Below are positions 5,724 to 29,835 of a DNA stretch of 34,298 nt, piece after piece. The stretch's first letter is position 1, and each line of letters opens with the position of its first letter. The notes beneath the pieces are model-generated. The model ran no database searches. It was not told the origin of the DNA and saw only the letters and a list, made by a program, of their open reading frames with translations. Both the position numbers and the translations under genes were made by a program. The DNA is from Verrucomicrobiota bacterium (lineage in GTDB: Bacteria; Verrucomicrobiota; Verrucomicrobiia; JADLBR01). The DNA lies in NCBI GenBank assembly GCA_029560585.1, contig JAKQKQ010000018.1, positions 1 to 34,298 on the forward strand, in the 5' to 3' direction.

Positions 5724-5749
5724 TCCGAAACCCACATCGAGAGAAATCC

Positions 5750-10999: not shown

Positions 11000-13939
11000 T
11001 TACATGGAAATGGCAAACCCGTAACGGGCGGCCATTTCTGAAAGGTCGCACTGAATCTGTTCCACGCTCTGGCCCATGGCGTGCAGCAGACCTGCGTAGC
11101 TCTCCATCGCTTTCTGCAAAGACGGATGAGGAGATCCTGTGGCGAGACGGCAGTTCAGCAGGATGACCAGGTGCCGCCGCATCAACGGTTCGGCCTCTGC
11201 CAGGCGATTGCGCGCTCTCAGCAATTGGGAAAGATTATTGAGATCCGCAGCTACAGTCGGGTGGTCCCTGCCCAGGGTGGCCTCATCAATGGCCAGGGCG
11301 CGGCGCATCAGCGACTCGGCTTCGGCTGGACGGTTTGTGGCTTTCATCAACTGGCCGAGATTGCCAAGGACGCGGGCCACATTGGGATGGTCTGGTCCAT
11401 GGCTTGTTTCAAAAATGTCCAGGGCGCGGCGCATCAACTGCTCGGCTTCGGAGAGCCGATCTGCCGCGGCCAACAAACTGCCCAGGTTCATCAAGGCGAT
11501 GCCGACCTGCGGATGTCCGCTTCCGAGATTGCGTTCGAAAATGGACAATGCCCGGCGCACGAGAGGTTCGGCATGCCGAGGACGGTTCGTGGTTTCCAGC
11601 ACTCCCGCGAGATTGATCAGGCCGACAGCGACATTGAGATGTTCATGGCCGAGGTTTCGTTCCCAGATCTCCAGTGCGCGTCGCATGAGGGGTTCGGCTT
11701 CGTGCGGTCGATCCGTTTCCTGAAACACCTGGGCCAGATTGTTGAGGGAGATGGCGACCTTCGGATGGCTGTCCCCGAAGGCCGCCTCGTCAATTGCCAG
11801 TGCCTGCCGCATCAGCGGCTCGGCCTCCGCCAGACGATGGGTCGCCCGGAACACTTGCGCCAGGTTGTTGATGCTGTTGGCGTTCCTTGGGTGAGCTTTT
11901 CCGTGATTGGTTTCATCGATTTCCAATGCAAGGCGCGCGTATGGCTCGGCTTGGTCGTAACGACCGATGCTGTGCAGCAAGGATGCAAGATTGGTCAAGG
12001 CTGTTGCGACATGGGGATGATTCTCACCCAGGCCAGCCCTGTAAACTTCCAGGACCCGCTCTAACAATGGGAGCGACTTCGTCCACTCCGCCAAGTCTCG
12101 CCTGCACAATCCTGCGACATTGAGAAACCAACCCGCCTTTTCACAGTCACCAGGACGGGCATTCCTTCCGTTCAGAGCTTCGGCCCATTGCCAGGCAAGG
12201 GCTTCAAAGGGGTCGAGTTCCCAGCGTGCTTCCTGCCAATGGGTTTCTGCGATCAAAGCATCACCGCGTTGCCGGAGAAGGTCCTCCAGATGCCCGCTGG
12301 ATATCTCCCTCCCTACCGCCAGCTCGTTTTCCAACACCCGCTGGAGAATGCGGTGCATGGTCGCAACGCGCGGCTCGGGAGTGGGTTGGAACAGTCTCAT
12401 GCCGATCAATCCCCGGATCAGCTGCGTCCACGGATCGCTTTCCCCGGTGGCGGCATCGGCGGCCAGTTCCGGATGGCGTTGTCCGGCAATCGCGCGTACC
12501 CACGGCAGCGCCACGCCGTCAGGTGCAAGCAGGGAGGCAATTTGCAGAACTGTCCGCGCCGGAGCATCCAGCCGGGCCAGCGTAGGCCGCAGCGTGGCCG
12601 TGACTTCGCGCAGTTGGCTCATCACGCCTTCGCTGCCGCCGGTTTTCAGGTCTTCACGGAGCTTGTTGAGGTAATTGCGCACGTCCACCGCATACTGCGG
12701 GTCGGTCACGCGCGGATCGCATTGCCCCAGATAGACGGCCGCCGTCTCCACGGCGAGGGTGAGTCCGCTCAACTCGCGGACGATCTCGCGGGCACCAGCC
12801 TCGTGTTCGGGTGAGGCAAACGCCTGTCCCGGTTGGTAGCGGCGGACCAGGTCAACGGCCTGATTCTCCGGCAGCCGGTCCAAATCCAACGCATGAATCG
12901 CGGCACCGGCCTTGGTGAAGTCGTTCGGAGCCAGCCGGGTGGTGTAGAGCACGCGCGCCCACGGCTGGTCGGCCAGCAGCTGCATCTGCTCCTGCGCCAG
13001 CAACGCGGGATGGTCCACGTTGTCGAGCAGGAACAACGCCGTGCCGCGCGCACGCAGCACGTCGAACACCCGTCGCACGGCCCTGGCATCGTCCAGCTTT
13101 TCCTCGTCGGTCAGCTCGATTTCGAGTTCGGTCACGAGCGTGCGGAAGACGGTGAGCAGCCGGTCGCGGCCTTCGCATCGCAGCAGCCAGCAACCGCCGG
13201 AAAAGGCATCGGCTTCCTTGTAAGCGAAGGCTTGCGCGAGCGCGGTCTTGCCCATGCCGCCGACGCCGTGGATGCCCGCCGGGGATGATTCCGGCGCATC
13301 GAGCAACGCGGCGCGCAGGCTGGCCAGTTCCGGTTCGCGTCCGACGAAGTTCGCGTTTGGCCACGGCAGGTTGCCCTGGCGGGCGCGATCCAGCGTGAGC
13401 AAGCGCAGTCGTTGCGCGACGTGCTCGGTGAGTTGCTGCAATTCGGAACGCGCCGCCGCATCGAGGAAGTTGCCGTGGTCGTCATGCCGCCATTCGTGGC
13501 ATTGGATGTGGAAGCGCTGGAGTAAGTCGCCCTGCCAACGGCGGAGCAATGCGGCGTCCTCCGGCGCGTCGAGGTCTTCGAGTTTCACGAACCACAGCGA
13601 CGCAGCGCCCTGGCCGACGAGGCCGTGTTCGAGTTCGTGCCGACACCATTCCTCCCATTCCCAGCGGCAGGCATCGCTGCGCAGGTAGCTGCGCGAGAGA
13701 CAGGCGATGAAGAAGCGCGAGTCGCGCAAAGCCCGATGGCAGCGCACCTGCCAATGGTCGAAGTCCTTGATGTCCTCCTTGTCGAAGAAGATCTCCAGAT
13801 CGCGGCCGAAGCGGCGGCGAAAACCGGCTTCCAGTTCACGATGTAGCCGGGCGACTAAAGCAGTCACGGATTCACGGGAAGTATTGTCGCCTTGATGCGC
13901 GTAGGAGATGAAGAGGTCGTAAGGCATACGATGTCTCAT
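11000..13939 (-). CDS. TIR-NB-ARC-TPR STAND protein
   Basis: This 979-residue protein has the architecture of plant TNL-like bacterial immune switches. The TIR domain occupies about 6-150 (YDLFISYAHQGD, IFFDKEDI); the likely catalytic glutamate lies around E94 in the CRWEWEEW segment. The NB-ARC part has P-loop GVGGMGKT at 225-232, Walker B LFLLDNVD at 302-309 and a TMHRILQ segment in the MHD position. From about residue 600 there are seven or more 42-residue TPR units with NLA and EAEPL(M/V)RRAL patterns, the presumed ligand sensor. TIR domains of this kind often cleave NAD. The ATG at 13939 overlaps the Nudix stop as ATGA, indicating coupling; an alternative ATG is at 13927. It ends in TAA at 11000-11002, followed by a TPR remnant. 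Confidence 0.9.
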   Translation of the reverse strand: MRHRMPYDLFISYAHQGDNTSRESVTALVARLHRELEAGFRRRFGRDLEIFFDKEDIKDFDHWQVRCHRALRDSRFFIACLSRSYLRSDACRWEWEEWCRHELEHGLVGQGAASLWFVKLEDLDAPEDAALLRRWQGDLLQRFHIQCHEWRHDDHGNFLDAAARSELQQLTEHVAQRLRLLTLDRARQGNLPWPNANFVGREPELASLRAALLDAPESSPAGIHGVGGMGKTALAQAFAYKEADAFSGGCWLLRCEGRDRLLTVFRTLVTELEIELTDEEKLDDARAVRRVFDVLRARGTALFLLDNVDHPALLAQEQMQLLADQPWARVLYTTRLAPNDFTKAGAAIHALDLDRLPENQAVDLVRRYQPGQAFASPEHEAGAREIVRELSGLTLAVETAAVYLGQCDPRVTDPQYAVDVRNYLNKLREDLKTGGSEGVMSQLREVTATLRPTLARLDAPARTVLQIASLLAPDGVALPWVRAIAGQRHPELAADAATGESDPWTQLIRGLIGMRLFQPTPEPRVATMHRILQRVLENELAVGREISSGHLEDLLRQRGDALIAETHWQEARWELDPFEALAWQWAEALNGRNARPGDCEKAGWFLNVAGLCRRDLAEWTKSLPLLERVLEVYRAGLGENHPHVATALTNLASLLHSIGRYDQAEPYARLALEIDETNHGKAHPRNANSINNLAQVFRATHRLAEAEPLMRQALAIDEAAFGDSHPKVAISLNNLAQVFQETDRPHEAEPLMRRALEIWERNLGHEHLNVAVGLINLAGVLETTNRPRHAEPLVRRALSIFERNLGSGHPQVGIALMNLGSLLAAADRLSEAEQLMRRALDIFETSHGPDHPNVARVLGNLGQLMKATNRPAEAESLMRRALAIDEATLGRDHPTVAADLNNLSQLLRARNRLAEAEPLMRRHLVILLNCRLATGSPHPSLQKAMESYAGLLHAMGQSVEQIQCDLSEMAARYGFAISM

Positions 13940-14881: not shown

Positions 14882-17500
14882 ATGGATGCGGAGGAGGCAC
14901 GGGTCGTGGAGGCGATCGACCGGCTGGGGCCGTCGGAGGCGTATCGGCAACGGATTGGCGAGAATGACGCGTGGATCGCCGGCCCCGATCTGGGGAATGG
15001 GCGGGCGATCGCGCGGGCGCGGACGGCGATCCACACGGCGCTGGTTGCGCGGTGGGCGGGGGAGCAGCATCGGGGCTTTGGATACGACCGGCCGTTCGCG
15101 GTTGTGGCGCTCGGGGGAACGGGCCGTGGGGAGATGACGCCGTGCTCGGACAACGATTTCGCATTTCTCTTTGATGGGGCACTGGAGGGGAATGCGTTCT
15201 TGTTGGAATTGCAGCGGCAGATCCTCCACACGGCCGAGTTCAGGGAGCGCCACGGGTTCACGCTCATGGCGCTGCCCTTCAGTCTGGATGACGCGCCGGA
15301 CATCACCGGGAAGCAACTGAACTCCTTCTTGGACATGAGGCCGGTGTACGACCCTGGCGGGCTGGCGGCGGCATTCCGGGATCGGATCCGGGCGACGTTT
15401 GACCCGTTCGAGCATTTCCTCCACGTGCGGGGTTTCTGGAAGGGGCGGTGGGAGCGGGCGGCGGGCGAATGCGAACGCGTGGATCAATTCGACATCAAGG
15501 ACGACGGCCTGCGGCTGTTCTTGGCCGGTATCTGGACTCTGGCGGGGCGGGGCTTTCTGCACAGCCATGAGGTCTATGAGGGATTGGAGGATCGCCGCGA
15601 TCTGGAGGCCTACGAGTTCCTGCTTCGGATCCGCGCCTTCATCCACCTGCGGCGCCAGCGGGAGGCCCGGGGGGACGGGGCCGGGAAGCGATCGCCCGAC
15701 ATTCTGAAATTCGATGATTTCATCTCGTTTGGCGAGATGCTGGGGCCGGATGCGAAATTGGAGGAGCGATTCGCTTTCGGCAACGAGGTGCGGGGGCGAC
15801 TCCTGTCGGCGCGGCGCCGGGTGGGGCGATTCGCGAAGGGCATCATCGAGGGGGAATTGGGGCGTGGCCGCAGGGTGGGATCCAGCAGCCCGATCGTCTA
15901 TGGGGCCGGTGGCCTGCGGCATTCGGGGGCCGCGGACTCGATCGCGGCCAGGGACAAGAGCCGGGCGTCGCTCTCCCTGCTGCTGGCCTCCCAGCGCTAT
16001 GGCGTTCCCATCGACCCCGCCGAACTGGAGGGGACCTTCCGAAACGCCGGGGATTGGCTCGTGCGGGCGCCGGAGCTGTCGGGGCTTTTCTATGAGCCGA
16101 AGGGGAGCCTGGCCGATTCTTTCGAGTTCCTGAGCCAGATCGATGGTGCCACCGAACGGCTATTCCCGGGATACGCAAAGTATGAATCGTCTCTGGATGC
16201 GCGGGTGATGGCGGAGCGCAAAAGCCTGCGGGGGGCCCTCGAGCGCCAGAAGATGCGCGCGCTGGAGAGGTACGTCCGCGATGGCCGGGCGCGCCTCGAT
16301 GCCGCGCTGTCGGCGAGCGGCGCGGGCGGCGGCGATGGCGAGGTGTCGGTCGAGATCGAGGCGGCGATGCTGGATGCCGACCATCTCGCCGCCGTCAAAC
16401 TCGCGCTCAAGACCAAGCGCCTCCCGGCGACGCCGGACGATCTCGCGAAGCGCCAAGACCAAAGCCTGCCGCTGCACGAACGCCATTCCAGCGGGTTCTC
16501 GGGTATCCTCCTGGAGGCCTACTTCCAGCCGTATGGTGACGAGTGCGACTTCACGCGGGAGACGCTGCGGGTTGCCGAGTTCCTCGTGGCCCATCGGAAG
16601 GCGTTCAAGGAGGGGGCGCGCGCCGCCATGAACGACGCCCGGCAGGTCGAGGAATTCGCCGGTATGTGCGGTAGCGAGCAAATGTTGCGCGCGCTTTTCG
16701 TGTTCACGTGCGCGGACCGGGTGGACTGGGAGTCGGAAAGGAGCGACCCCGCGCGCTGGTTCAACACCCGGGAGCTATACGCGAAGGCGATGCGGGTCTT
16801 TCGCCCGGGGCCGGACCCGGGGCAGTCCCTGCGGGTGGCCGGGTTCGCCCCGGAACAGCTGAGCATCCTGCGGGACTTTGGGGAGGACTTCTTCGCCGGT
16901 GGGTATCGTCGCTACGCGATCCGCTTCGGGGAGCATTTGGCCCGGATGGTCGAAGAGCCGAAGGCGCCGGGCGCGAAGGCCGCCCTCCTGCGCGAGGGGC
17001 AGTCGGTGATCCTGGGCGCGGCCGCGCGGGACTATCGGGGGTTGGCGGCAACGATCAGCGGCGCGCTCTGGAGCAAGGGGATCGACATCCAGCAGGCCCA
17101 CCTCTTTTCGGCCGCGCACTATGGTCTGGCGATGGATTTCTTCCACATTGCGCCGGGTGACAGGCCCGCGCCGGCCGACCTTCCCGCGGTCGTGCAGGAG
17201 GCCATCGGCGAGCGGCGCTTCATCGATGGCGGGGCGGGCCCGGGATTGCCGCGCGTCGATGGGGCTGTTTCGCTCGTGGAATGGAGACCGGGACAGTGGT
17301 GCCTCCGCGCCGAAACCGCCGACGGCGGGAGCGGCATCATTTTCGCCCTGACCTATCGGACCTTCCGATATCTCCGGGGCAACATCTTTGGTCTCACCGC
17401 CCACCGCATCCGGGGCCGGGCCTACGTGGCTGTCTACCTGAGCCTGCCCGAGGATCTGTCGCCCGACGAGGCGAGGGGAATCGTGGGGAAGGAGTTTTGA
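14882..17500 (+). CDS. GlnD-like nucleotidyltransferase with ACT domain
   Basis: This is an 872-residue protein with the layout of PII uridylyltransferase (GlnD). The nucleotidyltransferase signature GGTGRGEMTPCSDNDF is at 78-93, with the two metal-binding aspartates D90 and D92 (GlnD usually SDIDL). A GlnD/GlnE-type helical region follows (residues 190-330). The part where GlnD has its HD uridylyl-removing domain can be aligned by its later motifs (VAEFLVAHRKAFKEGARAAM, QVEEFAGMCGSEQMLRAL, CADRVDW), but the HD metal ligands are not evident; HERHSSG is at that point. A C-terminal ACT-like unit starts ISGALWSKGIDIQQAHLFSA. It may be a paralogue that only transfers nucleotides. It is not next to glutamine synthetase or PII genes. 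The ATG at 14882 follows GGGGAG. Confidence 0.7.
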   Translation: MDAEEARVVEAIDRLGPSEAYRQRIGENDAWIAGPDLGNGRAIARARTAIHTALVARWAGEQHRGFGYDRPFAVVALGGTGRGEMTPCSDNDFAFLFDGALEGNAFLLELQRQILHTAEFRERHGFTLMALPFSLDDAPDITGKQLNSFLDMRPVYDPGGLAAAFRDRIRATFDPFEHFLHVRGFWKGRWERAAGECERVDQFDIKDDGLRLFLAGIWTLAGRGFLHSHEVYEGLEDRRDLEAYEFLLRIRAFIHLRRQREARGDGAGKRSPDILKFDDFISFGEMLGPDAKLEERFAFGNEVRGRLLSARRRVGRFAKGIIEGELGRGRRVGSSSPIVYGAGGLRHSGAADSIAARDKSRASLSLLLASQRYGVPIDPAELEGTFRNAGDWLVRAPELSGLFYEPKGSLADSFEFLSQIDGATERLFPGYAKYESSLDARVMAERKSLRGALERQKMRALERYVRDGRARLDAALSASGAGGGDGEVSVEIEAAMLDADHLAAVKLALKTKRLPATPDDLAKRQDQSLPLHERHSSGFSGILLEAYFQPYGDECDFTRETLRVAEFLVAHRKAFKEGARAAMNDARQVEEFAGMCGSEQMLRALFVFTCADRVDWESERSDPARWFNTRELYAKAMRVFRPGPDPGQSLRVAGFAPEQLSILRDFGEDFFAGGYRRYAIRFGEHLARMVEEPKAPGAKAALLREGQSVILGAAARDYRGLAATISGALWSKGIDIQQAHLFSAAHYGLAMDFFHIAPGDRPAPADLPAVVQEAIGERRFIDGGAGPGLPRVDGAVSLVEWRPGQWCLRAETADGGSGIIFALTYRTFRYLRGNIFGLTAHRIRGRAYVAVYLSLPEDLSPDEARGIVGKEF

Positions 17501-17941: not shown

Positions 17942-19072
17942 GAGGGGCGCGGATGTAGGGTGAGGACGGGATCGCCGACCAAGGTTTCGGCGTGTCGGCG
18001 ACGGAGGCCGGCGGCGCGGGAGAAGGCATCGGTTTCGAGGCGGGCGTCCTCGGCGTTGGCGATGCGATCGAGGGAGGCCTGCGCCTCGCGAAGCGTGGCG
18101 CGCTCGTCGTTGGTGATATCGGTGGTGGCGCCGTGGCACGCATCGGTGGGTGGCCAATCGAGATCGGCGTCCCAGGGGAGGAGGCCGGCGCGCGCGGAGG
18201 CGGTTGATCCGCGAATCCGCGGCCAATGCGGCGCGGTGGAAATGGAAGAGATGTCTTGGTGGCTCGGGCAACCGGGCGATGGCCTTGGGCTCGCCGGCGA
18301 GGATGAAGGCCCGGGCGATCTCGAAGATCTCCTCGAAGCCGGGGTCCCTGGGCATGCGCGCGCGGGCCGCGGCGTGCGCGGCATCGCGGAGCTGTTCGCG
18401 GAGCGCGGGGTCATCGGCGAGGGTGAGGGACAGACGAAGGTCGAGGAGTTGCGCGCACCGGGCACGGAGTTCGTCGGCGACCATGCCCTTGGGCATGCGG
18501 GCCATCCGTTCGGCGTGTTCGCGCAGCGCCTCGTGCCGCCGCAGGGAGAAGAGGGGCCGCACGATCCACTTCTCGTGGGCGAAGGCCGAGTAACCGGGCG
18601 AGCACTCATGATGTTCGGAGAGCCGCTTGGCGAGCAGGGCGTGCTCCAGGGCCTGGTCATGCCGGCCCCGCGTCCAGTCGAGGAAGGCGCGGAGGAGATG
18701 CGTGCGCTGGCGCATGCCGGGGCGACCGACGCCGTCGCAGTACGCCTCCGCCTCGGAGAGGCGGTCGAGGCAGTCGGCGAGCGAGGCGTGGTGCAGGGCG
18801 ATCATGATGACGTCGGCCCTTGCCGCGATGATCGTGTCCGGCGCGATGTCGGGACGGTCGCAACTGGCGATGGGAAGGAGGAGGCGAAGGGCCTCCTCGT
18901 GCCGGGCATTCCACATGAGCGTGTGGCCCTGGCGGCGGCGTATGGGCAGTATGAAAGCCATGGTTCCCGCGACGCCGGCGGCCTGCTCGTACAGCCGGGC
19001 GGCCAGGCCGGTCTGACCGTTGCGATAGGCGTGGTCGGCGAGCGCGACGAGGAGAGTCGGAGGCTGGTTCAT
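17938..19072 (-). CDS. Helical-repeat (TPR-like) protein with apparent frameshift
   Basis: The ATG at 19072 overlaps the HSP90-like stop as ATGA. The product starts MNQPPTLLVALADHAYRNGQ and consists of helix pairs resembling TPRs (GQTGLAARLYEQAAGVAG, ARHEEALRLLLPIAS, GRHDQALEHALLAKRLSEHH). Around 18190-18215, in a CGCGCGCG run, the coding frame moves by one base: upstream the frame reads HFHRAALAADSRINRL, downstream the other frame reads ARAGLLPWDADLDWPPTDAC and carries very high third-position GC to TGA at 17938. Loss of one CG pair or gain of one base would explain it. The complete protein would be about 378 residues and may act as adaptor of the HSP90-like ATPase. Confidence 0.6.
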
Positions 19073-21207
19073 GGCGCTGAGGTGGGTGGCGAGAGCATGC
19101 CGAGCATGAGGCGCGCGAGTTCCTCGTCGGAGGCTCGGGCGACGCGCTCGCGGAACTCGGCCGGGGAGCGCCCGAAGGAGATGGCCGCCGCGGCGGCCCA
19201 GTCCTCGCCCGAGAGGGATTCGGTCCTTCCTCGGAGGACTCGGCGGAGCGCCGCATTCTGGCGCGCGGCGCGCGAAGCGCTGGCCTCGGCAAGCAGCATC
19301 TGTTCCAGGGCTTCTGTCAGGTGGTTGTGGATGGCCTGCGCATTCGAGGCGGAGAGCCTCCCCTTCGAATGAAGCAGCGCGGAAAAGTAGAGACCCAGGA
19401 GGGCGGTGCCGGTGGCGGTTGCCGTCGGACCGCGTGATGCTGCGGATGAGGGATGGGTGTCTTCCGCGTGTGACGAGGGCATCGCCGGTCGCGCGCCCTC
19501 GATGAGCGCGGTCTCCCGCTGGGCCAGTTGGACCACGAGGGGATTGGCGGCGTTGAGCAGGAGTACGCGCGGCTGCTCGTCGAGTTCGGCGTCCATGGCT
19601 GCCGACAGGCCATCCAGTCCCTTTTGCACGAAGGGGTGATGGAGGAGGAAACGGAGACGATCGCAATTCTCCTGGCGGGGATCCTCGATGAGCGCCGAAC
19701 AGACGCGCGCGGGTTCGAACCGCCGGATGCCGACCGAGACGTGCTTCAAGTTCGCGCCATCGAGCGCCGCGCGGACGGCGTCGAGGAGTGGGCCGAAGGC
19801 CTCGGCCTGTTCATCGGGCAGGCGCGCGTAGAGCTCCTCGCTCTCGAGCGTATCGAGCTTGCGGAGGGTCCACTCCGCGGGGTGGCGGGCGACCAGGCGG
19901 TGCAGCAGTTCCTCCTCGAAGCATTTCCCGGCGCTGATGGCGATCAGGTTGCGCATGCGGCAGATCTCGTAGAAGCGCGCGGCGTCGGCCTCGTCGGTGA
20001 AATAATAGACCGCGGTGGGCGCGCCCGCGGGGGTGGCGGCGCGCTTGCGGTATGCGTCGAGGGTGAGCGAACCCTCGCTCGTCTCGAAGGGCAGGCGCAG
20101 GATGAGCCGGTCGAAGACCCGGTCATCCTGAAGGGCTATGCCCTTGAGGTGGAAGTGGTGCCACTCGGCCAGCCGTGCGAAATAGGCCGGGCTTTCCTCC
20201 GACAGGCGCAGGATGGTCTCGATGATCCGCTCGCCCAAGGCGCGGCGGAGGGCCTGGTACGCGGCGTTGCGGTGGACGTTGTCGCGGGCCGCGGTGGGCT
20301 GGAGGTCGCGGCTGTCGATGATCCCGCGCACGAAGCGCGCCCACTCGGGCAAGAGCTCGGTGTCGCGGGGGCGGATCGACATCCGGTTTTGGAAGAGGTC
20401 CACGCAACCGCTGGTGCCAATGCCCGGCACGCGCTGGTCGGTGACGTAGAGGAGGCCCTGCGTTCGGAGCGCGGGAAGCTGCACGGGGATGACCAGCAGC
20501 GGGAAGTCGCGGTACCGATTGGATAGGTATTGCGTGAGGTACTCCTCGCGCTGGCTGTGGGGCAGGGCCGCCGCCACCTCCCAGGGCGGGCGCACCGCGT
20601 TCACCGGCCCCCGGCCGTTGAGGAAGATCGGCACCGGCAGCAGGTCGGCGTGCTTGCGGATCGCCCCCTCGATGCGCTCCTCGTCGAGGAACTCCGTGAA
20701 GTCGCGGTGGACCGCGGCGATCACCTGCGTGCCCACGTGGGGCATCTCGGAGGTCGGCTCCAAGGTGTACTCGTCGTCGCCGGTGTTGACCCAGTGCCAC
20801 GCCTCGCCGGTGGCGCCATGGCGCGTGTACACGTCCACCCGCTCGGCCACCACGAACGCCGAGAGCAGCCCGATGCCGAACTGCCCGATCGTGGCGACGT
20901 CGATGTTTGCTGACTGTCGCAGCTCGGCGGTCATCGTCCCGGTCCCGGACGAGCCGATGGTGGAGAGGAACTCCTCGATCACAAAACGGTCCATGCCGGG
21001 GCCGTTGTCGGTGAAGGTCACCGTCCGCGCCTCGCGGTCCACGGTCACCTGGATCTCGCCCGCGTGCTCCGGATCGCGCGCGCACCGCAACTGGATCCCG
21101 TCGTGCGCGTTCTGGATCAATTCGCGGACGAAGGCGTCCGCCTCGGGGTACAGGTTCTTGGCCAGCAGCGTGACCAATCCCCGGAAGTTGGACTTCATCT
21201 TCGGCAT
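19069..21207 (-). CDS. HSP90-like (HtpG-type) GHKL ATPase
   Basis: This is a 712-residue protein with a clear GHKL ATP-binding domain: RELIQNAHD at 28-36 (E29 catalytic, N33 Mg-binding), DNGPGM at 67-72, and GQFGIGLLSAF near 108. A middle domain with ARDNV-type arginine loop (PTAARDNVHRNAAYQALRR) follows, as in HtpG. The C-terminal third is not typical of HtpG and has an Ala/Ser-rich stretch. HtpG is about 620 residues, so this is an enlarged paralogue. HSP90-like ATPases of this sort are found in bacterial conflict loci as well as in chaperone roles. A strong ribosome site (AAGGAAG) precedes the ATG at 21207. The stop overlaps the next gene by ATGA, starting a four-gene leftward operon. Confidence 0.85.
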   Translation of the reverse strand: MPKMKSNFRGLVTLLAKNLYPEADAFVRELIQNAHDGIQLRCARDPEHAGEIQVTVDREARTVTFTDNGPGMDRFVIEEFLSTIGSSGTGTMTAELRQSANIDVATIGQFGIGLLSAFVVAERVDVYTRHGATGEAWHWVNTGDDEYTLEPTSEMPHVGTQVIAAVHRDFTEFLDEERIEGAIRKHADLLPVPIFLNGRGPVNAVRPPWEVAAALPHSQREEYLTQYLSNRYRDFPLLVIPVQLPALRTQGLLYVTDQRVPGIGTSGCVDLFQNRMSIRPRDTELLPEWARFVRGIIDSRDLQPTAARDNVHRNAAYQALRRALGERIIETILRLSEESPAYFARLAEWHHFHLKGIALQDDRVFDRLILRLPFETSEGSLTLDAYRKRAATPAGAPTAVYYFTDEADAARFYEICRMRNLIAISAGKCFEEELLHRLVARHPAEWTLRKLDTLESEELYARLPDEQAEAFGPLLDAVRAALDGANLKHVSVGIRRFEPARVCSALIEDPRQENCDRLRFLLHHPFVQKGLDGLSAAMDAELDEQPRVLLLNAANPLVVQLAQRETALIEGARPAMPSSHAEDTHPSSAASRGPTATATGTALLGLYFSALLHSKGRLSASNAQAIHNHLTEALEQMLLAEASASRAARQNAALRRVLRGRTESLSGEDWAAAAAISFGRSPAEFRERVARASDEELARLMLGMLSPPTSAP

Positions 21208-21430: not shown

Positions 21431-24400
21431 TCAATTCAACCCTCGGGGAGTGGCGTCCCGCCACGCCGGGAAGGCATCGAGGGCAGGCAGGTTCTTGACG
21501 TCGCTCAGCGCGGCGACGAGGGCGGCGAGCAGGGCGTGGGCGTCCGGGGTCAGATTCGCGCGCAGGTGTTCCAGCACTGGGCCCATGGACCATTCCATGT
21601 GAGCGCCCTCGGCTTGGAGCGCGGTCTTGAGGCGACCGAGAAGAATTGCGGAAGTGGGATTTCGGATTTCGGAATGCGGATTGGTCAAAAGATCGCAGGC
21701 CAGTTGGAGCCAGAGGATTCGCGGGACGACGTAGGGCGGGGCCTCGGCGCGGTGCTCCCACGCCTCGCGCGCGTGTTCCCGCGCGTCGTCGAAGCGATCG
21801 GTGAGGAGGCCGATGCGCGCCAAATGGCAGTGGGTGCCGGGGATTTCGAAGCCTCTCGCGAGAACGCGTTCCAGCAGGGCGATGGCTTGGGCGCTGTCTC
21901 CCAGCTTGTAGCTATCCAACGCCGCGGTGCGGAGCTGAAGGGGTGTTGCATCGGGTTTTCTCGCCACAGCGGCAAGCGCCCGAAGGCGCAGCGGGCGGGC
22001 GTCAGCGGCGCGGCCGGTCTTCTCGAGAACGTCGGCCAGTGCCTGGACGCTGGCGAGGGTGTCGGGATGCTCCGGCCCCAGGACCCGCTCGCTCGCCTCC
22101 AGCGCGCGCTGGTAGAGGGGCAGCGCCCCGGCGTAGTCCCCCTTGCTCTCCAGCAGAGCGGCGAGGTTGTTGACGCTGTCGAGGGTGGAGGGATGCTCCG
22201 GCCCCAGGACCCGCTCGCCGACCTGCAGGGCCTGGCGAACGAGCGGCTCCGCCTCTGTCAAGCGGGCCATGGCATCTAAGCGCACCATGACCCTGTTGGC
22301 GATGGGCGGAGCCGTCGTTCGCCCTTGATCGAGCCAGTGGGTTGCGAGCGCGGCGAGGGGTTCGACCTCCCAGCGGTTGTCCCAGTCCAGCCAGCCCTTT
22401 TCGAGAAATCCGAGCCGGCCATGAACGAGTTGCTCGATGGCGCCGATGCGGGCATCCCATTTTGAGGCGAGCGCTGGATCGGTCGCGGCATTCTCGTCGG
22501 GGGGCTCCGCAACGACCTTCTGCACGAGGCGGTGCATGCGCATGACGCGGGGCCGCCGGTCGGGGTCGACGTCCACGACGCTGGGGAGCAGACGGAGGCC
22601 GGCGAGCCGGCGAACGACGCCATCGTGCCAGGGATCGGGGCGCCCCGGGCCGAGGGCGGCGCCGAGTTCGGGGAATGTCTTGGCGACGAGCGCGCGCAGC
22701 CAGGGGATCACCACCTGATCCGGCGGCAGGAGAGCGGCGAACTCGACCGCGAGGCGCTCGGGCGGGGTGAGGCGGTCGAGGGTCGGGCGGATCAGGCGGC
22801 CGAGGAGTTTCTCGTGGTTGTGCCGGCGCAGTTCGACTGAGGCGTCGGCACCGAGGACGTCGAGGACGGGCAGGACATTGGCGCGGATGTCTTCGAGCAT
22901 CGCCTTGCAGGAGAGGTTGGGCTCGTTGGCGAGATGGACGGCGATCGTTTCGATCGCCAGCGCGAAGCCGCCAAGGTCGGCGGCGATCTGGCGGGCGGCG
23001 GCCCGCTCGGATGCGTCGGTGAAGGGGCGGTGCTTCTCGATAAGGCGCACCGCGTCGTCGGGGGGCAGCTCGTCAATGGCGAGCCAGGCGGTGGTTTCGT
23101 GGGCCGCGGCGCGAACCCCGGAGCGTTGCGCGGCGGGCGGCGGCTCCAGCCGTGTGGTGCCGAGCAGGTGCACGATGTCCTGGCCGAGATTGAGGAGGTC
23201 GGTCTGCTGTTTGGATAGCAGCTCGCGGCGATCCACGTTATCGAGCACGAGGAGGACGCGGCCCTTCTCGCGGCCCCAGCGGGCCAGTCCGGCGCGGATC
23301 TTCGGGAAGGACAGATCGAGGCTCTTCTTCTCGTCGTCGGTGAATTCGACGCCGATGTCGGGGGCGAGGTCGCACAGCACGGCGCGCAGGTCGTCGCGCC
23401 CCTCGCAGCGGAGCAGGTAGCGCCCGCCAGGGTACTCGTGGGCGAAGGCGTGGGCGTAGGTGAAGGACAGCTCGGTCTTGCCCATGCCCCCGAGGCCGTG
23501 TACGGCCGCCACCACGCCCATGCGGCGGAGCGAGAGCATTTCGAACAGGGCGTCCAGTTCGCGGAGCCGCCCGACGAAGCAGGGATTGTAGTCGGGAACG
23601 GTGTTCGGCGAGGCCGCGGCCCGGTCCACCCGCTCGGTCCGCTCGCGGATCAGGCGTTCCAATTCAGCGAGGCGGGCCCGCAGGGCTTCGTGGCGCAGCG
23701 CTTCGACGCCCTGCGGCACGAAGGGGTGAAGGTCAAAATGCTGGCGGCGCCGGTAGTTGCCCATCCACGCGGCGTTCTCCTGGTCGGCGGCATCCGGAAA
23801 ACCCGGCACCTCGACGAAGTAAACCGGCGTGATGCCCTCGCTGAGCACGTGGCGCGCGATCTCGTGCTCGACCCACGCCTCCCATTCCCTGCGGCACCAT
23901 TCGCTCTTGAAGTAGTTCGGCGAAAGGAACGCCAGCAGGAGCTTCGACTCGCGCAGGCCCCGGCCGATGCGCCATTCCCAGTTGTCCGACGGCCGGATGT
24001 CTTCCTTGTCGAAAAAGACCCTCAGTTCGTGGCCGCCGGTGGCACGCCGGTGCTCGGCCTGCAGCGCCTCGATGAACGCGGTGACCCAGCCGGCTTCACC
24101 GGGGCGCGCGGGCTGGTTGTCTTTCCGGGCATAGGAAATGAAAAGGTCCCATGGCCCCTCACCAAGCGGCGAGTCGGCGGGTGCTGCGGGTTGGGACGAT
24201 GCCAGCTTCGGCTGCGGGGAGGCGGCGGGCACCTGCGGGGTCTGCGGCGCCGGCGCCATGCCGAAGAGTGTGGCGAGGGTCCGGGAATTGGCATCGCCGG
24301 GCCGCCACGCGACGGCCTCGGGGTGGAGCTGGCCTTCGGCGAGGGCTTGATGGATTTCGTAGAGACAGACGCCTTCGGTGGTCCGGTCATCCTGCGAGAC

Positions 24401-24574
24401 GTTCCATTCCTCGATGAGCCACGATGCGGGGACCGATTGGGGCGCGCCGTCGTACCAGACGAGGGTTTCGGGTGGGATGGCCCCGGCGGCAATGCGCGCG
24501 CGGAGGTCGTCGAGGGGGATGGGGCCGTGGGTGCCGCCGGGGGTTTGGAAGAACCAGCGTGGTTCGGCGCTCAT
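21431..24574 (-). CDS. GYF_2-TIR-NB-ARC-TPR STAND protein
   Basis: This encodes 1047 residues. Residues 4-60 match GYF_2 (WFFQTPGGTHGPIPLDDLRA, then TLVWYDG), and a shorter GYF_2-like half (IHQALAEGQLHPEAVAWRPG) ends near 103. A Pro/Ala linker leads to a TIR domain (WDLFISYARKDN at 142-153, FFDKEDI, SEWCRREWEAW with probable catalytic E230). NB-ARC: P-loop GLGGMGKT at 360-367, Walker B LLVLDNVD about 441-448, MRMHRLVQ in the MHD position. Two clear TPR units follow (VNNLAALLESKGDYAGALPL). The last 170 residues are a domain shared with the DUF4062 STAND gene in this window. GYF_2 domains are thought to bind peptides or attach to membrane proteins, here possibly recruiting the TIR. A short dispersed repeat is embedded near the C-terminus. 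The start follows no strong ribosome site. Confidence 0.88.
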   Translation of the reverse strand: MSAEPRWFFQTPGGTHGPIPLDDLRARIAAGAIPPETLVWYDGAPQSVPASWLIEEWNVSQDDRTTEGVCLYEIHQALAEGQLHPEAVAWRPGDANSRTLATLFGMAPAPQTPQVPAASPQPKLASSQPAAPADSPLGEGPWDLFISYARKDNQPARPGEAGWVTAFIEALQAEHRRATGGHELRVFFDKEDIRPSDNWEWRIGRGLRESKLLLAFLSPNYFKSEWCRREWEAWVEHEIARHVLSEGITPVYFVEVPGFPDAADQENAAWMGNYRRRQHFDLHPFVPQGVEALRHEALRARLAELERLIRERTERVDRAAASPNTVPDYNPCFVGRLRELDALFEMLSLRRMGVVAAVHGLGGMGKTELSFTYAHAFAHEYPGGRYLLRCEGRDDLRAVLCDLAPDIGVEFTDDEKKSLDLSFPKIRAGLARWGREKGRVLLVLDNVDRRELLSKQQTDLLNLGQDIVHLLGTTRLEPPPAAQRSGVRAAAHETTAWLAIDELPPDDAVRLIEKHRPFTDASERAAARQIAADLGGFALAIETIAVHLANEPNLSCKAMLEDIRANVLPVLDVLGADASVELRRHNHEKLLGRLIRPTLDRLTPPERLAVEFAALLPPDQVVIPWLRALVAKTFPELGAALGPGRPDPWHDGVVRRLAGLRLLPSVVDVDPDRRPRVMRMHRLVQKVVAEPPDENAATDPALASKWDARIGAIEQLVHGRLGFLEKGWLDWDNRWEVEPLAALATHWLDQGRTTAPPIANRVMVRLDAMARLTEAEPLVRQALQVGERVLGPEHPSTLDSVNNLAALLESKGDYAGALPLYQRALEASERVLGPEHPDTLASVQALADVLEKTGRAADARPLRLRALAAVARKPDATPLQLRTAALDSYKLGDSAQAIALLERVLARGFEIPGTHCHLARIGLLTDRFDDAREHAREAWEHRAEAPPYVVPRILWLQLACDLLTNPHSEIRNPTSAILLGRLKTALQAEGAHMEWSMGPVLEHLRANLTPDAHALLAALVAALSDVKNLPALDAFPAWRDATPRGLN
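21654..21682. repeat. Dispersed GGATTTCGGAATGCGG-type repeat inside a gene
   Basis: The run GGGATTTCGGATTTCGGAAT followed by GCGGATT lies within the GYF_2-TIR STAND gene and encodes NPHSEIRNPTSAI. It breaks the alignment with the paralogous C-terminal domain of the DUF4062 gene exactly at a variable linker. Related sequence occurs at 5484-5515 and 5603-5635. Confidence 0.5.
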
Positions 24575-24730
24575 TGGGGGAGAGGATTAGCGGGGTGTTG
24601 CGGGGAGGGAAGGCGGAATGCGGTGGGCTAACACGCGCGTTCGTTTGGTGGGGTAAGGATGAGGCGAGGCGCCCGGGGCCCTATTTTGATAGGGCGATGA
24701 TGGAAATGGGTGATGTGGCGGCCTCTCCGT

Positions 24731-24833
24731 TCAGAAACTCCGCAGCCAAGCGCGCACCCCGTCGTGTGTCATCACATCGAAGGCGGTGAGCAGCCCCTTT
24801 TCGACGAGGAAGATGATCCGGTGGAGAATTATA
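24731..24833 (-). pseudogene. Orphan C-terminal coding fragment
   Basis: The minus strand reads HIILHRIIFLVEKGLLTAFD, then VMTHDGVRAWLRSF and TGA at 24731-24733. Most codons end in G or C and the sequence looks like real protein, but there is no in-frame ATG or GTG with a ribosome site, and upstream it runs into the 3' end of the next gene in another frame. It may be the tail of a lost gene, or the natural C-terminus of the membrane protein upstream after a frameshift. I do not recognise the family. Confidence 0.35.
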
Positions 24834-24842
24834 TGACCCGCA

Positions 24843-26054
24843 TCACCGCACAGACATCGCTGCCTCCGATGGACTGTGTGGGCGCGCGCTCAGGCTGATA
24901 GGGCTGATCTCGCGTGCCAACTCCCGCTCGTAGGCCCCGTATCCGCATATGTAGCAATAGGGCGAAGCCTCGATGAATCGGACCAGTAACCCAGCCACAA
25001 AGGTCTCGCTATCGTCGCGCAGCTCCCTTCGTGCTGATCGGGTGAGTTCATCCATCTCCCAAGACATGCCTGATCCGGGTAGGGGCCCATATTTTCGAAT
25101 GGCCATGGCGACCGTCTCGGTGGCTTGCAGATTCGAGACGATCCCCACGCGTCGGATCCACATGGGATAGCGAACGGGAAGTGATCTGGTGGAGATGATT
25201 ATTATGAACCACGCTATTGCGGCAGCGATGGTTCCGACCAAGATCCTCAGTCCCCAACGCAGGACCGTGTGCAAGATGCGTTGGCCTCGGTCGGTCTTGA
25301 GCAGCTCTGGAACGTCGAGCAGTCCAACGGCTTGCCCCGGGGTCTCGGGTAGTGCCTCGGGCGACCTGAGGGCGCCGCCAGCGACAGAGGGCTGCGGGCC
25401 GTCGCCGCCGAGGCCTGAAGCAGGCCTTAAATCCTCTTCGGGTTGTCCCATTTGCGCGGCGTGGCGTTGCCGAAGGGGTTCTGACGTTGCCGGAGAAGTC
25501 GGATCAGCGTAACCCAACGATTGCAGGAGCTCGTGCGGTATCGAGGCGATTGGCAACCTCAGGACACCCGTGGATGTCATGACCACGATGGCATCCGGCT
25601 CGGTCCGGAGGACCTTGACATCGGCGCGCGTTGTCCCGTCCGAATCCGTGAACGTGATCGTCCTATCCTTGATCGCGCCATGGGGGCGCGGTGCGGTCTG
25701 GGCGACTGGTGATGGGATCGTCGATCTGCCCAAGCCCCACGCGGTCAACACGTCGCCAGGCACAGTGTCGATGGGAATTCTCAGGACGCCGGTGGAGGTC
25801 ATGACGACGACCACGCCCGCTTCCGCGCGGAGTAGTTTCGCGTCCACATGTTCGCGCCCCCGCGAGTCGGTGAACGTCAGGGCAGCGGCCTGGGGTCCGG
25901 CCTGGCAGTGGACACCGGAGAGGCTGACGAGGCACAAGATGATCCCGATGGTTATGATCGGGGCGCGGCCGCTCGCCCCGGCACCGAATCGGCGTAGCCC
26001 GAGGCCGCCACGCGGTGGGTGATTGGACTGGGGTTGGCTTTTGGCGCTCGTCAT
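24843..26054 (-). CDS. Membrane protein with two tandem small beta domains
   Basis: This 403-residue protein has an N-terminal hydrophobic segment (about 32-50, IITIGIILCLVSLSG), probably a signal peptide or anchor. Two related units of about 50 residues follow: LTFTDSRGREHVDAKLLRAE and TITFTDSDGTTRADVKVLRT, each followed by VVMTSTGVLR(I/L)PI. Such modules occur in exported PVC proteins. After a Pro/Gly-rich linker there is one strong membrane segment (about 268-290, GTIAAAIAWFIIII) and a cytoplasmic-looking tail with a CYIC pair. It lies between two STAND genes and reads with them, 268 and 244 bases away. No function assigned. A frameshift at its 3' end is possible (see the fragment at 24731-24833). 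Confidence 0.65.
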   Translation of the reverse strand: MTSAKSQPQSNHPPRGGLGLRRFGAGASGRAPIITIGIILCLVSLSGVHCQAGPQAAALTFTDSRGREHVDAKLLRAEAGVVVVMTSTGVLRIPIDTVPGDVLTAWGLGRSTIPSPVAQTAPRPHGAIKDRTITFTDSDGTTRADVKVLRTEPDAIVVMTSTGVLRLPIASIPHELLQSLGYADPTSPATSEPLRQRHAAQMGQPEEDLRPASGLGGDGPQPSVAGGALRSPEALPETPGQAVGLLDVPELLKTDRGQRILHTVLRWGLRILVGTIAAAIAWFIIIISTRSLPVRYPMWIRRVGIVSNLQATETVAMAIRKYGPLPGSGMSWEMDELTRSARRELRDDSETFVAGLLVRFIEASPYCYICGYGAYERELAREISPISLSARPHSPSEAAMSVR

Positions 26055-26298
26055 GCGCCGTCTCCTGTGAAGCCAGTGCGTGGGACCGTCTTGGGTTCGA
26101 CGGGGCTCAAGCTCAGGAATTTTTACGAGAAGCTGGTTCGCCCGTCAAGGGGAGGCTCCGGGCCGCTTCTGGCATGGAACGCGCCGTAACAGGGCCGTCG
26201 CGCGGCTCGCTCACGCTCGCCGCTGCCCAGCTGTCGCGGAAGAGCACGGATTAGGGACGCGCGCTCGTGGTGGGGGCGCCTTACGGTCGCGTCTCCGG

Positions 26299-29200
26299 TC
26301 ACTTCAGTGGTCTTGGCCTCGCCTCTCGCCACTCGCGGAATCCCTCGAGGTGCCGCAAGTTGGCCTGGGCGGCAAAGGCATCGGCGAGGGCGGCGAGCAG
26401 AGCGATCTCCTCCGGACGCAGCTTGGACTTCAAGTGATCGATGACCGGCCGCATGGACCACTCCATGTGGGCGCCGCGTGCCTTTAGCGCGGTCTTGAGC
26501 ATGCCGAGCGTGCTGTCGATTGGCGCGCCGGTGTCGTCCTGCTGATGGCGGCCTCCCACCATCATCGCCGCCAGCCGCAACCACAAGATCCTGGGGATGA
26601 CATGCGGGGGTGCCTCCGCGCGGTGGAGCCATGCCGTGGCGACATTCTGTTGCACCGCGGCGATATCGTCGTTTAGGAAAGCGATGCGGGCGAGGTGGCA
26701 GGCGGTTCCGGGGATCTCAAATCCGGCATCGAGGACTCGGCGCAGAAGTTCCTGTGCCATCGGGTAGTCACCCAGGATGTAGCTGTCGAGGGCACACATC
26801 CGAAGGTCCTGCGGGGTCGCCTCGGGCTTATTCGCCAGGACTTTCAGACGGCGCACGCGAAGAGGGCGGGCCTCGGCGGGGTGCCCCCTCCTCTCCAAGA
26901 CGTCCGCTAGACTTTGCATGCTCGCGAGGGTGTCCGGGTGTTCTGCCCCAAGGGCGCGGACGTTGGCTTCCAGCGCCCGGCGAAACAGGGTCTCAGCGCC
27001 CTCGAGATCGCCTTTGCGCTGCAGCAGTCCGGCGAGGCAACAGATGTTGACGAGTGTATTGGGATGCTCCGGGCCCAGCACCCGCTCGTTGATCTCGAGC
27101 GCCTGGCGGTATAGCGGCTCGGCGCCGGCGAAGTCGCCTTTGCGCTCCAGGGCGTACGCGAGGCCGTTTACGCTCATGAGGGTATCGGGATGTTCTGGCC
27201 CCAAGACGCGTGCGCGGGCATCGAGGGCGCGGCAGTGAAGGGCTTCGGCGCCGGCGTAGTCGCCCCTCTTCTCCAGCACGAGGGCGAGGTTGCTTGCGCT
27301 GGTCAGGGTCTCCGGGTGATCTGGGCCTGATGCGCGTTCCCTGGTCTCCAGCGTTCGGCGGTGCAGGGACTCTGCGTCCGCATAGCGGCCCATGCGCTCA
27401 AGAAGGAAAGCCAGGTTGTTGGCCGTGACCAGCGTGCTGGGATGGTCCGGGCCCAGGGCGCGCCGACTGGCCTCGAGGGCCTTGCGAAGGAGCGGCTCAG
27501 CGGTGCGGTGGTCGCCCTTGAGCTGCAGGAGGGAGGCGAGATTATTGGCGATCACGAGCGTATCGCGATGTGCCGGACCCAGCGAGCGCTGACAGATCTT
27601 GTGTGCCTGGCGCAACAGGGGCTCGGCTGACGAATAAAGTCCGTTGTCGGATAGGAACTGGCCGACCAGCGCCGGGATGACGTGATCCCGCGAATTCTCG
27701 GGGATCTTCAGCCAGCGGGAACATGCCGACGCGTAGTCTTCGCCCATGTTCCTGCCGGCCTGCCTCAGAGGATGCCAATAGCGGGTGAGCTCCCACTGCG
27801 TCTCGGGTTTGTAGAGCGTCAGGAAGAGCGGTATCCGGGTGAGGCAGTCTCCGAGACGGTCCCAGGCGCGTGCGGCATGGAGCTGAAATGGCCACTCCGC
27901 CGCCTTGCGGGAACTTATCCCTCGCTGGCTCGGGTGGTCATCGAAATAATTCGCTATCGCGAGGTGTGCGGACTCCCCGTCTTCCGCGGAGGGGAGCAAC
28001 TCATCTTCGATCGCCTGCCTCAGAAAGTCGTGGCCGGGGACCCAGAGTCCCGTGTGCTGGGTCAGATGGGCGACGGTGGCCAAGAAGAGCGGGCGCCAGG
28101 ATTGGCGGTCCATGGGACCCCGTTCGTCGGCGAGCAGTTCCAGCCATTCGCTTTCAGAGAGTCCTTGGCGGGCCGCCCAGAGGAACCGCAATGATCGGGT
28201 GACGATGTCGCGTCCCCCATGGAAGTCGGTGGACCAGCGCCGGATCACGTGCCGGAAGAGCGCGGCAGGGTTGTCGGCCTTGAGGTATTCGTGGACCTTT
28301 TCCGGGAGACGATCGAAATCACCGAACTGGCGCAATTCGTCGAGGACGGTCCGGAGAAAGAGAGGGTTCGCGCAGCCGGGGGCATCGGCAATCTGGTCCC
28401 GGAGAGCCGGACTGAGCTTCTTGCGATAGATGTTCAGGAAAGAGTCGATCATGCGCCGGCGTTCGTCCGCCTCGGCCAGGGGGAGCGAGTGCAATGGCCA
28501 CTCACGTTCGCGCAAGGCATCGAGAGCGGGTCCCGGCAGGCACGAAGCGACGACCCGGACATGGGGTGGCAGCGGGTGAGGGAACCAGGATAGGTTTCGC
28601 TCGGAAGGGTCGCCAGCGATCTGGTTGAGCGCATCGAGGACAAGAACGATTCGGGGGACCCGTCCGGACGCCTGCCCCAGCCAGAGGGGCAGGACTTCGG
28701 CCATCTTGTCGGGCTTTGCTGGGATCTCGTCTCGGATGCCCGCAAGGCGCCTGATCTCGCCCAGCAGGCGATACAAGAAGTGCGGGATCGATGCGCTCTC
28801 GGCGGTCGCCCCAAAGTAGTGCTCCAAAAGGAAGTGATCGGGGTAGGCTTCGCGATATCGGGATGCCCACGCGGCCAGAAGTGCGGTCTTGCCACAGCCG
28901 GACTCGCCAATGACGACGAGCCCGCGCTTCCCGTTATCCGAGGCCGCGAAAGCGTCCAGCGCGCACAGGTGGATTGGGCGTTCGACAAATGCCAGGAGTT
29001 TCCTTCGCGCGTACGCGCGGTGGGCGTTGGCCTCTTGTTCGAGTGCGCCGGGGACTTTCTCCCCCGGGTACAGCTCGTTGATCAGGTCCAAGAATTGCCT
29101 GTGGACGATGCGGGCGAGTTCGGGCGGATCGCGGTACGGATCGACCAGCGGCACTCCGCTGGCGCGGATGGTCTTCTTGAGCGCCGCGAGTTTTGCGATG

Positions 29201-29835
29201 CGCTCGCGCGTGCGTCGGGCGGCGCCTTCGGGTCCAAACGCGCGGACATCCTCCGGGATGTCGCGCTCGACCATCTCTTGCCGATCCTCGGTTGAGAGGG
29301 TGGCGATGTAGGCCGGGTCTCGGAAGTAGAAGAACGCGTGACCGGACATGCCCGGGTTGCGGAGGACCCCGTACAGAATCTCAAGCTCCGTGACCGATGT
29401 CCGTTCCTGAACGTGTTCCTGTATCCATCGCTCCTTGGCGAGAACCTCGGCGGGCACTGTGGCGGGAATCCAGCCATAGCGTTCGCCGAGGATGCCAATG
29501 AAATAGGGGCGGCAAGCATTGATCTCCTCCAAGCAGAGCGGAAGGACTTTCCCCTCGGCCTGCTCCTCGCGGGTGATGCCCCATCGCAGGTCGACCTCGG
29601 TGAACGAGACGAAGCGTTCCTCGCAAATCCTGCGCAGTTCGGGGAACACGTGCTTGACGAGCAATTCGCGCTCCTCGCGCATATCGCGGAATGTCGAGGA
29701 GATGAAGATGCGGATTTCTCGTCGCGCGAGGTGGTTTGACTCGGGGGACAGAGGTTCGCCGGATGGCGCCAAGGGCGAGGGGTCGGATGACGGGAATGAC
29801 GGGGTGCCGGGTTGCTCCGGCGACTCATCGCTCAT
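26299..29835 (-). CDS. DUF4062-NTPase-TPR STAND protein (nephrocystin-3-like layout)
   Basis: This 1178-residue protein starts with a disordered Ser/Pro tail, then DUF4062 at about 41-130 (IRIFISSTFRDMREERELL), a domain with a TIR-like alpha/beta outline found in front of STAND ATPases. A P-loop GESGCGKT lies at 310-317, with Walker B IVLVLDALNQ near 395. TPR units from about 740 number six to seven (TLVIANNLASLLQLKGDHRT type). The last 170 residues (LDSYILGDY…, FEIPGTACHLARIAF, AEAPPHVIPRILWLRLA, GAHMEWSMRPVIDHL) match the C-terminus of the GYF_2-TIR STAND gene closely. DUF4062-NTPase-TPR is the layout of animal nephrocystin-3 and TEP1-like proteins. It diverges from the RyR gene. Start at 29835 is the first ATG. 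Confidence 0.87.
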   Translation of the reverse strand: MSDESPEQPGTPSFPSSDPSPLAPSGEPLSPESNHLARREIRIFISSTFRDMREERELLVKHVFPELRRICEERFVSFTEVDLRWGITREEQAEGKVLPLCLEEINACRPYFIGILGERYGWIPATVPAEVLAKERWIQEHVQERTSVTELEILYGVLRNPGMSGHAFFYFRDPAYIATLSTEDRQEMVERDIPEDVRAFGPEGAARRTRERIAKLAALKKTIRASGVPLVDPYRDPPELARIVHRQFLDLINELYPGEKVPGALEQEANAHRAYARRKLLAFVERPIHLCALDAFAASDNGKRGLVVIGESGCGKTALLAAWASRYREAYPDHFLLEHYFGATAESASIPHFLYRLLGEIRRLAGIRDEIPAKPDKMAEVLPLWLGQASGRVPRIVLVLDALNQIAGDPSERNLSWFPHPLPPHVRVVASCLPGPALDALREREWPLHSLPLAEADERRRMIDSFLNIYRKKLSPALRDQIADAPGCANPLFLRTVLDELRQFGDFDRLPEKVHEYLKADNPAALFRHVIRRWSTDFHGGRDIVTRSLRFLWAARQGLSESEWLELLADERGPMDRQSWRPLFLATVAHLTQHTGLWVPGHDFLRQAIEDELLPSAEDGESAHLAIANYFDDHPSQRGISSRKAAEWPFQLHAARAWDRLGDCLTRIPLFLTLYKPETQWELTRYWHPLRQAGRNMGEDYASACSRWLKIPENSRDHVIPALVGQFLSDNGLYSSAEPLLRQAHKICQRSLGPAHRDTLVIANNLASLLQLKGDHRTAEPLLRKALEASRRALGPDHPSTLVTANNLAFLLERMGRYADAESLHRRTLETRERASGPDHPETLTSASNLALVLEKRGDYAGAEALHCRALDARARVLGPEHPDTLMSVNGLAYALERKGDFAGAEPLYRQALEINERVLGPEHPNTLVNICCLAGLLQRKGDLEGAETLFRRALEANVRALGAEHPDTLASMQSLADVLERRGHPAEARPLRVRRLKVLANKPEATPQDLRMCALDSYILGDYPMAQELLRRVLDAGFEIPGTACHLARIAFLNDDIAAVQQNVATAWLHRAEAPPHVIPRILWLRLAAMMVGGRHQQDDTGAPIDSTLGMLKTALKARGAHMEWSMRPVIDHLKSKLRPEEIALLAALADAFAAQANLRHLEGFREWREARPRPLK

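What the first reader, a model, noticed from the sequence alone, without database searches (positions are those of the whole stretch)
21431..29835. Two different STAND proteins share a distinctive 170-residue C-terminal domain
The GYF_2-TIR-NB-ARC-TPR and DUF4062-NTPase-TPR proteins differ in N-termini and ATPase type but end alike: ALDSY(K/I)LGD, GFEIPGT, CHLARI, HRAEAPP, VIPRILWL, (R/A)GAHMEWSM. The TIR-STAND at 11000-13939 lacks it. A shared end suggests module exchange or a common partner.
Basis: seen in the sequence. Interest (0 to 1): 0.6.

Follow-up and report, generated by a model that had tools for sequence, protein, structure and literature searches.

The report
Shared tail on two immune-type receptors
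Two neighbouring bacterial immune-receptor-like proteins with different front ends share a rare, previously uncatalogued 172-residue helical tail that also turns up alone and on enzymes related to the Pup-tagging ligases, so it is a reusable recognition module and not just the end of a repeat array.

Summary
Residues 876-1047 of the TIR-NTPase-TPR protein (window 21434-21949, minus) and 1006-1178 of the DUF4062-NTPase-TPR protein (26302-26820, minus) are 55% identical; the third TIR-STAND of the window, a paralogue, ends after its TPRs without it. No Pfam or NCBIfam model covers the segment beyond weak TPR matches to its first ~60 residues. AlphaFold2 (pLDDT 92) shows an all-helical continuation of the TPR solenoid plus a terminal cap. 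It is not an ordinary TPR ending: it is rare (genome scan: four loci in three genomes), occurs as a free-standing 171-residue protein, and is the C-terminus of two Pup-ligase-family (PafA/Dop) proteins that have no TPR array. In one Verrucomicrobia MAG the free-standing copy lies ~5 kb from an E1-E2-Ubl-JAB-AAA-Pup-ligase operon. Best reading: a transferable TPR-like adaptor/sensor module on two STAND receptors whose TIR and DUF4062 heads are probably both NADases, binding a shared, conserved protein or peptide. Module reuse is shown; exchange between the two receptors is suggested only (AU p 0.14); the shared partner is inferred; a link to Pup/Ubl conjugation is a testable speculation.

The parts
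21434..21949 (-). Shared C-terminal domain, copy A (residues 876-1047, 172 aa)
   Evidence: 55% identical to copy B; profile full-length match
26302..26820 (-). Shared C-terminal domain, copy B (residues 1006-1178, 173 aa)
21431..24574 (-). Protein A, 1047 aa: GYF_2 (7-51), TIR (145-283), NB-ARC-like STAND NTPase (P-loop GLGGMGKT 360-367), short TPR stretch, CTD
   Evidence: Pfam, NCBIfam FxSxx_TPR/FxsC partial matches, motifs
26299..29835 (-). Protein B, 1178 aa: DUF4062 (42-142), AAA_16/NACHT-like NTPase (P-loop GESGCGKT 310-317), NPHP3-type TPR array, CTD
   Evidence: Pfam, motifs
24843..26054 (-). 403-aa protein between A and B, apparent transmembrane stretch, no family match
19069..21207 (-). 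HSP90-family protein gene directly downstream of A on the same strand (224 bp gap)
   Evidence: NF010683 E 3e-99, below its curated cut-off; HSP90 Pfam E 1e-10
11000..13939 (-). Third TIR-STAND-TPR, a paralogue of A without the CTD (natural control)
   Evidence: Pfam; 37-42% identity to A by domain, ends after TPR; no CTD profile match

Best explanation
The shared segment is an autonomous TPR-like C-terminal module: about two regular and further degenerate helical hairpins that continue the solenoid, plus a terminal helical cap. It acts as a recognition/adaptor end on two STAND (NLR-like) receptors. Inferred working: in the resting receptor the TPR plus CTD solenoid holds the NTPase inactive; binding of a protein or peptide in the concave groove of the CTD releases it, the NTPase oligomerises, and the N-terminal TIR (A) or TIR-like DUF4062 (B) hydrolyses NAD+. 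Because the same module, with the same groove residues, sits on both receptors, as a free protein and on PafA/Dop-like ligases, it most likely binds one conserved class of partner in all of them. Shown: module, boundaries, contexts, fold model, conserved residues. Inferred: autoinhibition, groove binding, common partner, NAD+ hydrolysis by these particular proteins.
For: Occurrence without any TPR array: C-terminus of two Pup_ligase proteins (PF03136 E 3e-67 and 3e-89) and a 171-aa stand-alone protein, whose edges fall on the same boundary. High-confidence helical model, pLDDT 92.4, aligned with kinesin light chain TPR domains up to about CTD residue 110, with the last ~60 residues largely beyond that match. 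Invariants R7, C41, H42, R45 of the CTD fall on TPR helix-A positions 5, 5, 6, 9 in the register of the Pfam TPR matches; positions 5 and 9 line the groove of known TPRs (own knowledge). The CTD is the best conserved part of A against its closest TIR-STAND homologue: 55% against 50% TIR, 47% NB-ARC, 43% arm, as expected for a conserved partner. TIR proteins and DUF4062 proteins are NADases in characterised cases (DUF4062: Swarozyc, PMC13174449); P-loops and candidate catalytic Glu motifs (SEWCRREWE; TSVTELE) are present.
Against: No partner was identified; no experiment. Two proteins can keep a domain for folding or capping alone. The Pup-ligase fold job failed (pLDDT 33), so placement of the CTD on the ligase is unseen. 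Only six clear members are known.
Confidence: 0.55

Rival explanations
1. Structural cap only: the segment ends the TPR solenoid and stabilises it, with no binding role; it is a lineage-specific member of a broader TPR-terminal cap family.
For: Model continues the TPR superhelix. Distant relatives sit at the C-terminus of other TPR proteins: L037 (E 5e-7), L038 ParA-TPR (E 3e-6), hhalign 97.9% probability over 144 columns.
Against: It occurs on proteins with no TPR array (Pup ligases) and alone. Invariants include polar, non-scaffold residues (R7, E35, H42, R45, R77). Paralogous and distant TPR-STANDs end without it.
Confidence: 0.25
2. Docking module of a Pup-ligase/ubiquitin-like pathway: STANDs carrying the CTD are coupled to, or guard, a conjugation system (the CTD binds the modifier, a ligase partner, or a tagged substrate).
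For: CTD fused to PafA/Dop-like PL2 in L010 and L011; free-standing CTD, whose nearest relative is the L011 CTD (44%; 94/97 support), about 5 kb from an E1-E2-Ubl-JAB-AAA-two-Pup-ligase operon in G007, which also has a TIR-STAND with CTD on the same contig.
Against: No Pup ligase in the window's own genome, 96% complete; no classical Pup in any of the four genomes tested; in G419 only the CTD-fused ligase was found.
Confidence: 0.2
3. Ordinary extension of TPR arrays present in most TPR-STAND proteins.
For: First ~60 residues give weak TPR matches.
Against: Absent from the third STAND in the window, from the G007 DUF4062 STANDs read here (which end in WD40 repeats or are incomplete), and from nearly all genomes searched.
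Confidence: 0.03

Closest known systems
STAND NTPases / bacterial NLR-like receptors (TIR-NB-ARC-TPR; FxSxx_TPR model NF040586)
   Same: Effector-NTPase-TPR layout, P-loop, NB-ARC or NACHT-like domain
   Different: Carry an extra uncatalogued C-terminal module; scores lie far below the FxSxx equivalog cut-offs
Swarozyc DUF4062 TIR-like NADases and NPHP3/TEP1-type DUF4062-NACHT proteins (PMC13174449)
   Same: DUF4062 head in B; DUF4062-NTPase order as described for the human proteins
   Different: Characterised Swarozyc uses a winged-helix auxiliary domain; B has NTPase, TPR and the CTD
Kinesin light chain TPR domains (PDB 3zfw, 5ojf, 7ai4)
   Same: 42-residue-type TPR solenoid, best structural match (Z 15-18)
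   Different: Match ends before the terminal cap; a shared repeat fold shows no shared function
PafA/Dop Pup ligase-depupylase family
   Same: Catalytic part of L010, L011 and L070 PL2 is PF03136 with the GhExE motif (motif from PMC2588565)
   Different: Add a TPR-like C-terminal extension; no classical Pup detected; linked to ubiquitin-type genes

Membership tests
STAND NTPase receptor (A and B) | P-loop STAND-type NTPase between effector and repeat domains | tested here: met
   NB-ARC E 8e-4 (A, under gathering score), AAA_16/NACHT E 3e-5/4e-4 (B, under gathering scores); P-loops GLGGMGKT and GESGCGKT
TIR NADase (A) | TIR domain with catalytic glutamate in WCxxE region | tested here: met
   TIR_2 E 4e-17; SEWCRREWE residues 224-232; activity not tested
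DUF4062 TIR-like NADase (B) | DUF4062 domain | tested here: met
   PF13271 E 6e-14
DUF4062 TIR-like NADase (B) | Conserved catalytic Glu (E97 of KpSwz) | tested here: inconclusive
   Candidate TSVTELE; not aligned to the published protein
Swarozyc system | DUF4062 plus winged-helix portal-binding auxiliary domain | tested here: not met
   B has NTPase-TPR-CTD instead; auxiliary domain described in PMC13174449
TPR repeat (CTD) | Pfam TPR match over the gathering score within the CTD | tested here: not met
   Best TPR_16 E 6e-4, 20.6 bits against a 32.7 cut-off, first 63 residues only; copy B none
TPR-like helical solenoid (CTD) | Antiparallel helical hairpins continuing a TPR superhelix | tested here: met
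   AF2 model pLDDT 92.4 and KLC alignments
Pup ligase/depupylase family (L010, L011 hosts of the CTD) | PF03136 domain with GhExE motif | tested here: met
   motif from PMC2588565
Classical Pup-proteasome system | Pup protein (PF05639) in the genome | tested here: not met
   No match in G419, G420, G007, G000

The most novel reading that the evidence does not exclude
The CTD is a shared docking module that couples NAD-depleting NLR-like receptors to a bacterial hybrid ubiquitin-fold/Pup-ligase conjugation pathway, so the receptors monitor or are controlled by protein tagging; the conserved basic groove would bind an acidic tail such as that of a modifier.
Probability: 0.18. Interest if true: 0.85.

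Novelty: new variant of a known kind. Interest (0 to 1): 0.55.

Why it matters
STAND receptors are usually sorted by effector and NTPase while the sensing end is left as 'TPR'. Here is a defined, nameable, transferable end present on two predicted NADase receptors and on Pup-ligase-family enzymes, with boundaries fixed by nature, which makes partner hunting practical. If the partner is shared, it would connect bacterial NLR-like immunity with protein tagging, a link familiar in plants and animals but, as far as I know, not established for bacterial STANDs.

Tried and rejected
Viral contigs, phage and plasmid collections: no CTD. PDB sequence search with the CTD profile: no real match. Many genome-search hits over only the first ~60 model positions are generic TPRs, and C-half profile hits L043/L044 are PTS enzyme I, false positives at E 6e-5 to 1e-3. 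L016 is a chance frame. Pup-ligase plus CTD structure prediction failed, pLDDT 33, so no fold search was made with it. Recent gene conversion between A and B rejected by third-position divergence. Formal proof of tail exchange failed (AU p 0.142 and 0.132). Literature searches found no description of this domain or of a CTD-Pup-ligase fusion in the open library; subscription papers are not covered, and the hybrid Ubl/Pup-ligase operon itself may be described there.

Full report
Observation. Protein A (21431-24574, minus) and protein B (26299-29835, minus) are intact ORFs. Pfam gives GYF_2, TIR, NB-ARC and TPR for A, and DUF4062, AAA_16/NACHT and NPHP3-type TPRs for B. Their last 172 and 173 residues (A 876-1047, B 1006-1178) are 55% identical; in a six-frame search of the 7.06 Mb genome the query finds only these two places, E 5e-113 and 2e-50. 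BLASTP alignment between A and B starts earlier, in the last TPRs, so the question was whether the tail is separate from the repeat array.

Is it separate? A profile of the tail does not match the TPR units of A or B, nor anything in the third TIR-STAND of the window. That third protein is a paralogue of A (TIR 38%, NB-ARC 42%, arm 37%) that ends right after its TPRs, a natural control. Pfam sees only sub-threshold TPR matches in residues 1-63 (up to 70) of copy A, and none in copy B. NCBIfam has no model for it.

Relatives. One scan of 84,980 species genomes gave four loci in three genomes: L008, a TIR-NB-ARC-TPR-tail protein in a Verrucomicrobia MAG; L009, a 171-residue stand-alone tail in the same MAG; L010 (Gammaproteobacteria MAG) and L011 (Acidobacteriaceae MAG), in which the tail is the C-terminus of a Pup_ligase (PF03136) protein without a TPR array. 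That scan finds close relatives only. Sampling of whole genomes shows rarity: 2 of 57 relatives, and few further genomes in 286 of the class, 388 and 289 of the phylum, 396 of the Acidobacteriaceae MAG's phylum and 369 of the Gammaproteobacteria MAG's class, where most additional matches cover only the generic TPR-like first third or are chance. Three distant relatives look real because they sit at the C-terminus of TPR proteins: L036 (DUF4062-NTPase-TPR, E 2e-10), L037 (E 5e-7) and L038 (ParA-like ATPase plus TPR, E 3e-6); a two-row profile of L037/L038 aligns with the tail at 97.9% probability over 144 columns. So the strongly conserved tail is one distinctive branch of what may be a wider family of TPR-terminal caps.

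Structure. The A segment 760-1047 is predicted with mean pLDDT 92.4, all helical. Kinesin light chain TPR domains align from the last TPRs into the tail up to about tail residue 110 (Z 15-18), leaving the last ~60 residues largely as a cap. Residues invariant in the six clear members include R7, C41, H42, R45, W64, P76, R77 and W120.

Exchange. In the N-terminal DUF4062-NTPase tree, B pairs with L036, 100/99, with 73% identity in DUF4062 falling to 50% in the arm, but only 26% in the tail, whereas B's tail is 55% identical to A's. No bootstrap tree unites the two DUF4062 tails, yet the AU test does not reject uniting them (p 0.142). Exchange is suggested, not shown. DNA identity of the tails is 58.6% with 51% third-position identity at shared residues, so any exchange is old.

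Link to Pup ligases. L011 is nearest to Dop and PafA among solved structures (Dop E 3e-51, PafA 1e-41), L010 and L011 match both NCBIfam models below cut-off, and both keep the GhExE motif described for PafA (PMC2588565). The MAG that has L008 and L009 carries, on the same contig, an operon with ThiF/E1-like, a protein read by eye as E2-like, a small protein read by eye as ubiquitin-like (weak SAMP1 match), JAB, a proteasomal-type AAA ATPase and two Pup ligases; the stand-alone tail gene lies about 5 kb from the second ligase. The Acidobacteriaceae genome has a similar operon (L071) plus the ligase-tail fusion, and the ligase part of that fusion is 44% identical to the second ligase of the first MAG. 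No classical Pup was found, and the window genome has no Pup ligase. Therefore the tail is associated with this ligase type, but the STANDs of the window probably do not depend on a Pup ligase in their own cell (the assembly is 96% complete).

Mechanism. DUF4062 has been reported as a TIR-like NADase used in phage defence (Swarozyc, PMC13174449, a preprint). The tail is the best conserved part of A compared with the L008 protein (55% against 43-50%), which fits a conserved partner more than a fast-changing phage trigger. I therefore favour a groove-binding adaptor/sensor module with one conserved partner class (0.55), over a purely structural cap (0.25) and a specific Ubl/Pup-ligase docking role (0.2; a special case that overlaps the first). 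NAD+ hydrolysis, activation by binding, and the partner are inferred.

Surroundings. The island also holds an HSP90-family gene next to A, a RyR-domain AAA protein, and a GlnD-like nucleotidyltransferase, consistent with a conflict/defence island; this was not followed further.

Noticed in passing
window 19072-21207 (-): HSP90-family protein gene 224 bp downstream of the TIR-STAND; HSP90 beside a TPR-bearing NLR-like receptor recalls the plant NLR-HSP90 pairing. It lacks a terminal MEEVD-type tail.
   Followed up: no
window 5543-8413 (+): 957-aa AAA/MoxR-like ATPase with a C-terminal RyR domain (PF02026 E 8e-9).
   Followed up: no
window 14783-17497 (+): 905-aa protein with a GlnD/DUF294-like nucleotidyltransferase region.
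   Followed up: no
window 2646-4046 (-): IS-type DDE transposase (DUF772) near the island.
   Followed up: no
L070:7142-17508 and L071:1202-7360: Operons combining E1 (ThiF), apparent E2-like and ubiquitin-like proteins (by eye; E1 not seen in L071), JAB, a proteasomal-type AAA ATPase and Pup-ligase-family enzymes (two in L070, one in L071), without classical Pup: a hybrid of ubiquitin-type and Pup-type conjugation.
   Followed up: partly
L011:2372-4096 (-) and L011:8531-9481 (+): SLATT_1-bearing protein (SLOG-like N-terminus by eye) and a TIR-like protein (by eye) flank the Pup-ligase-tail fusion in the Acidobacteriaceae MAG.
   Followed up: no
L040:3-2969 (-): In the second MAG the TIR-STAND with the tail is divergently adjacent to a DUF4062 STAND that runs into WD40 repeats, so TIR- and DUF4062-STAND genes are near neighbours in both genomes.
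   Followed up: partly
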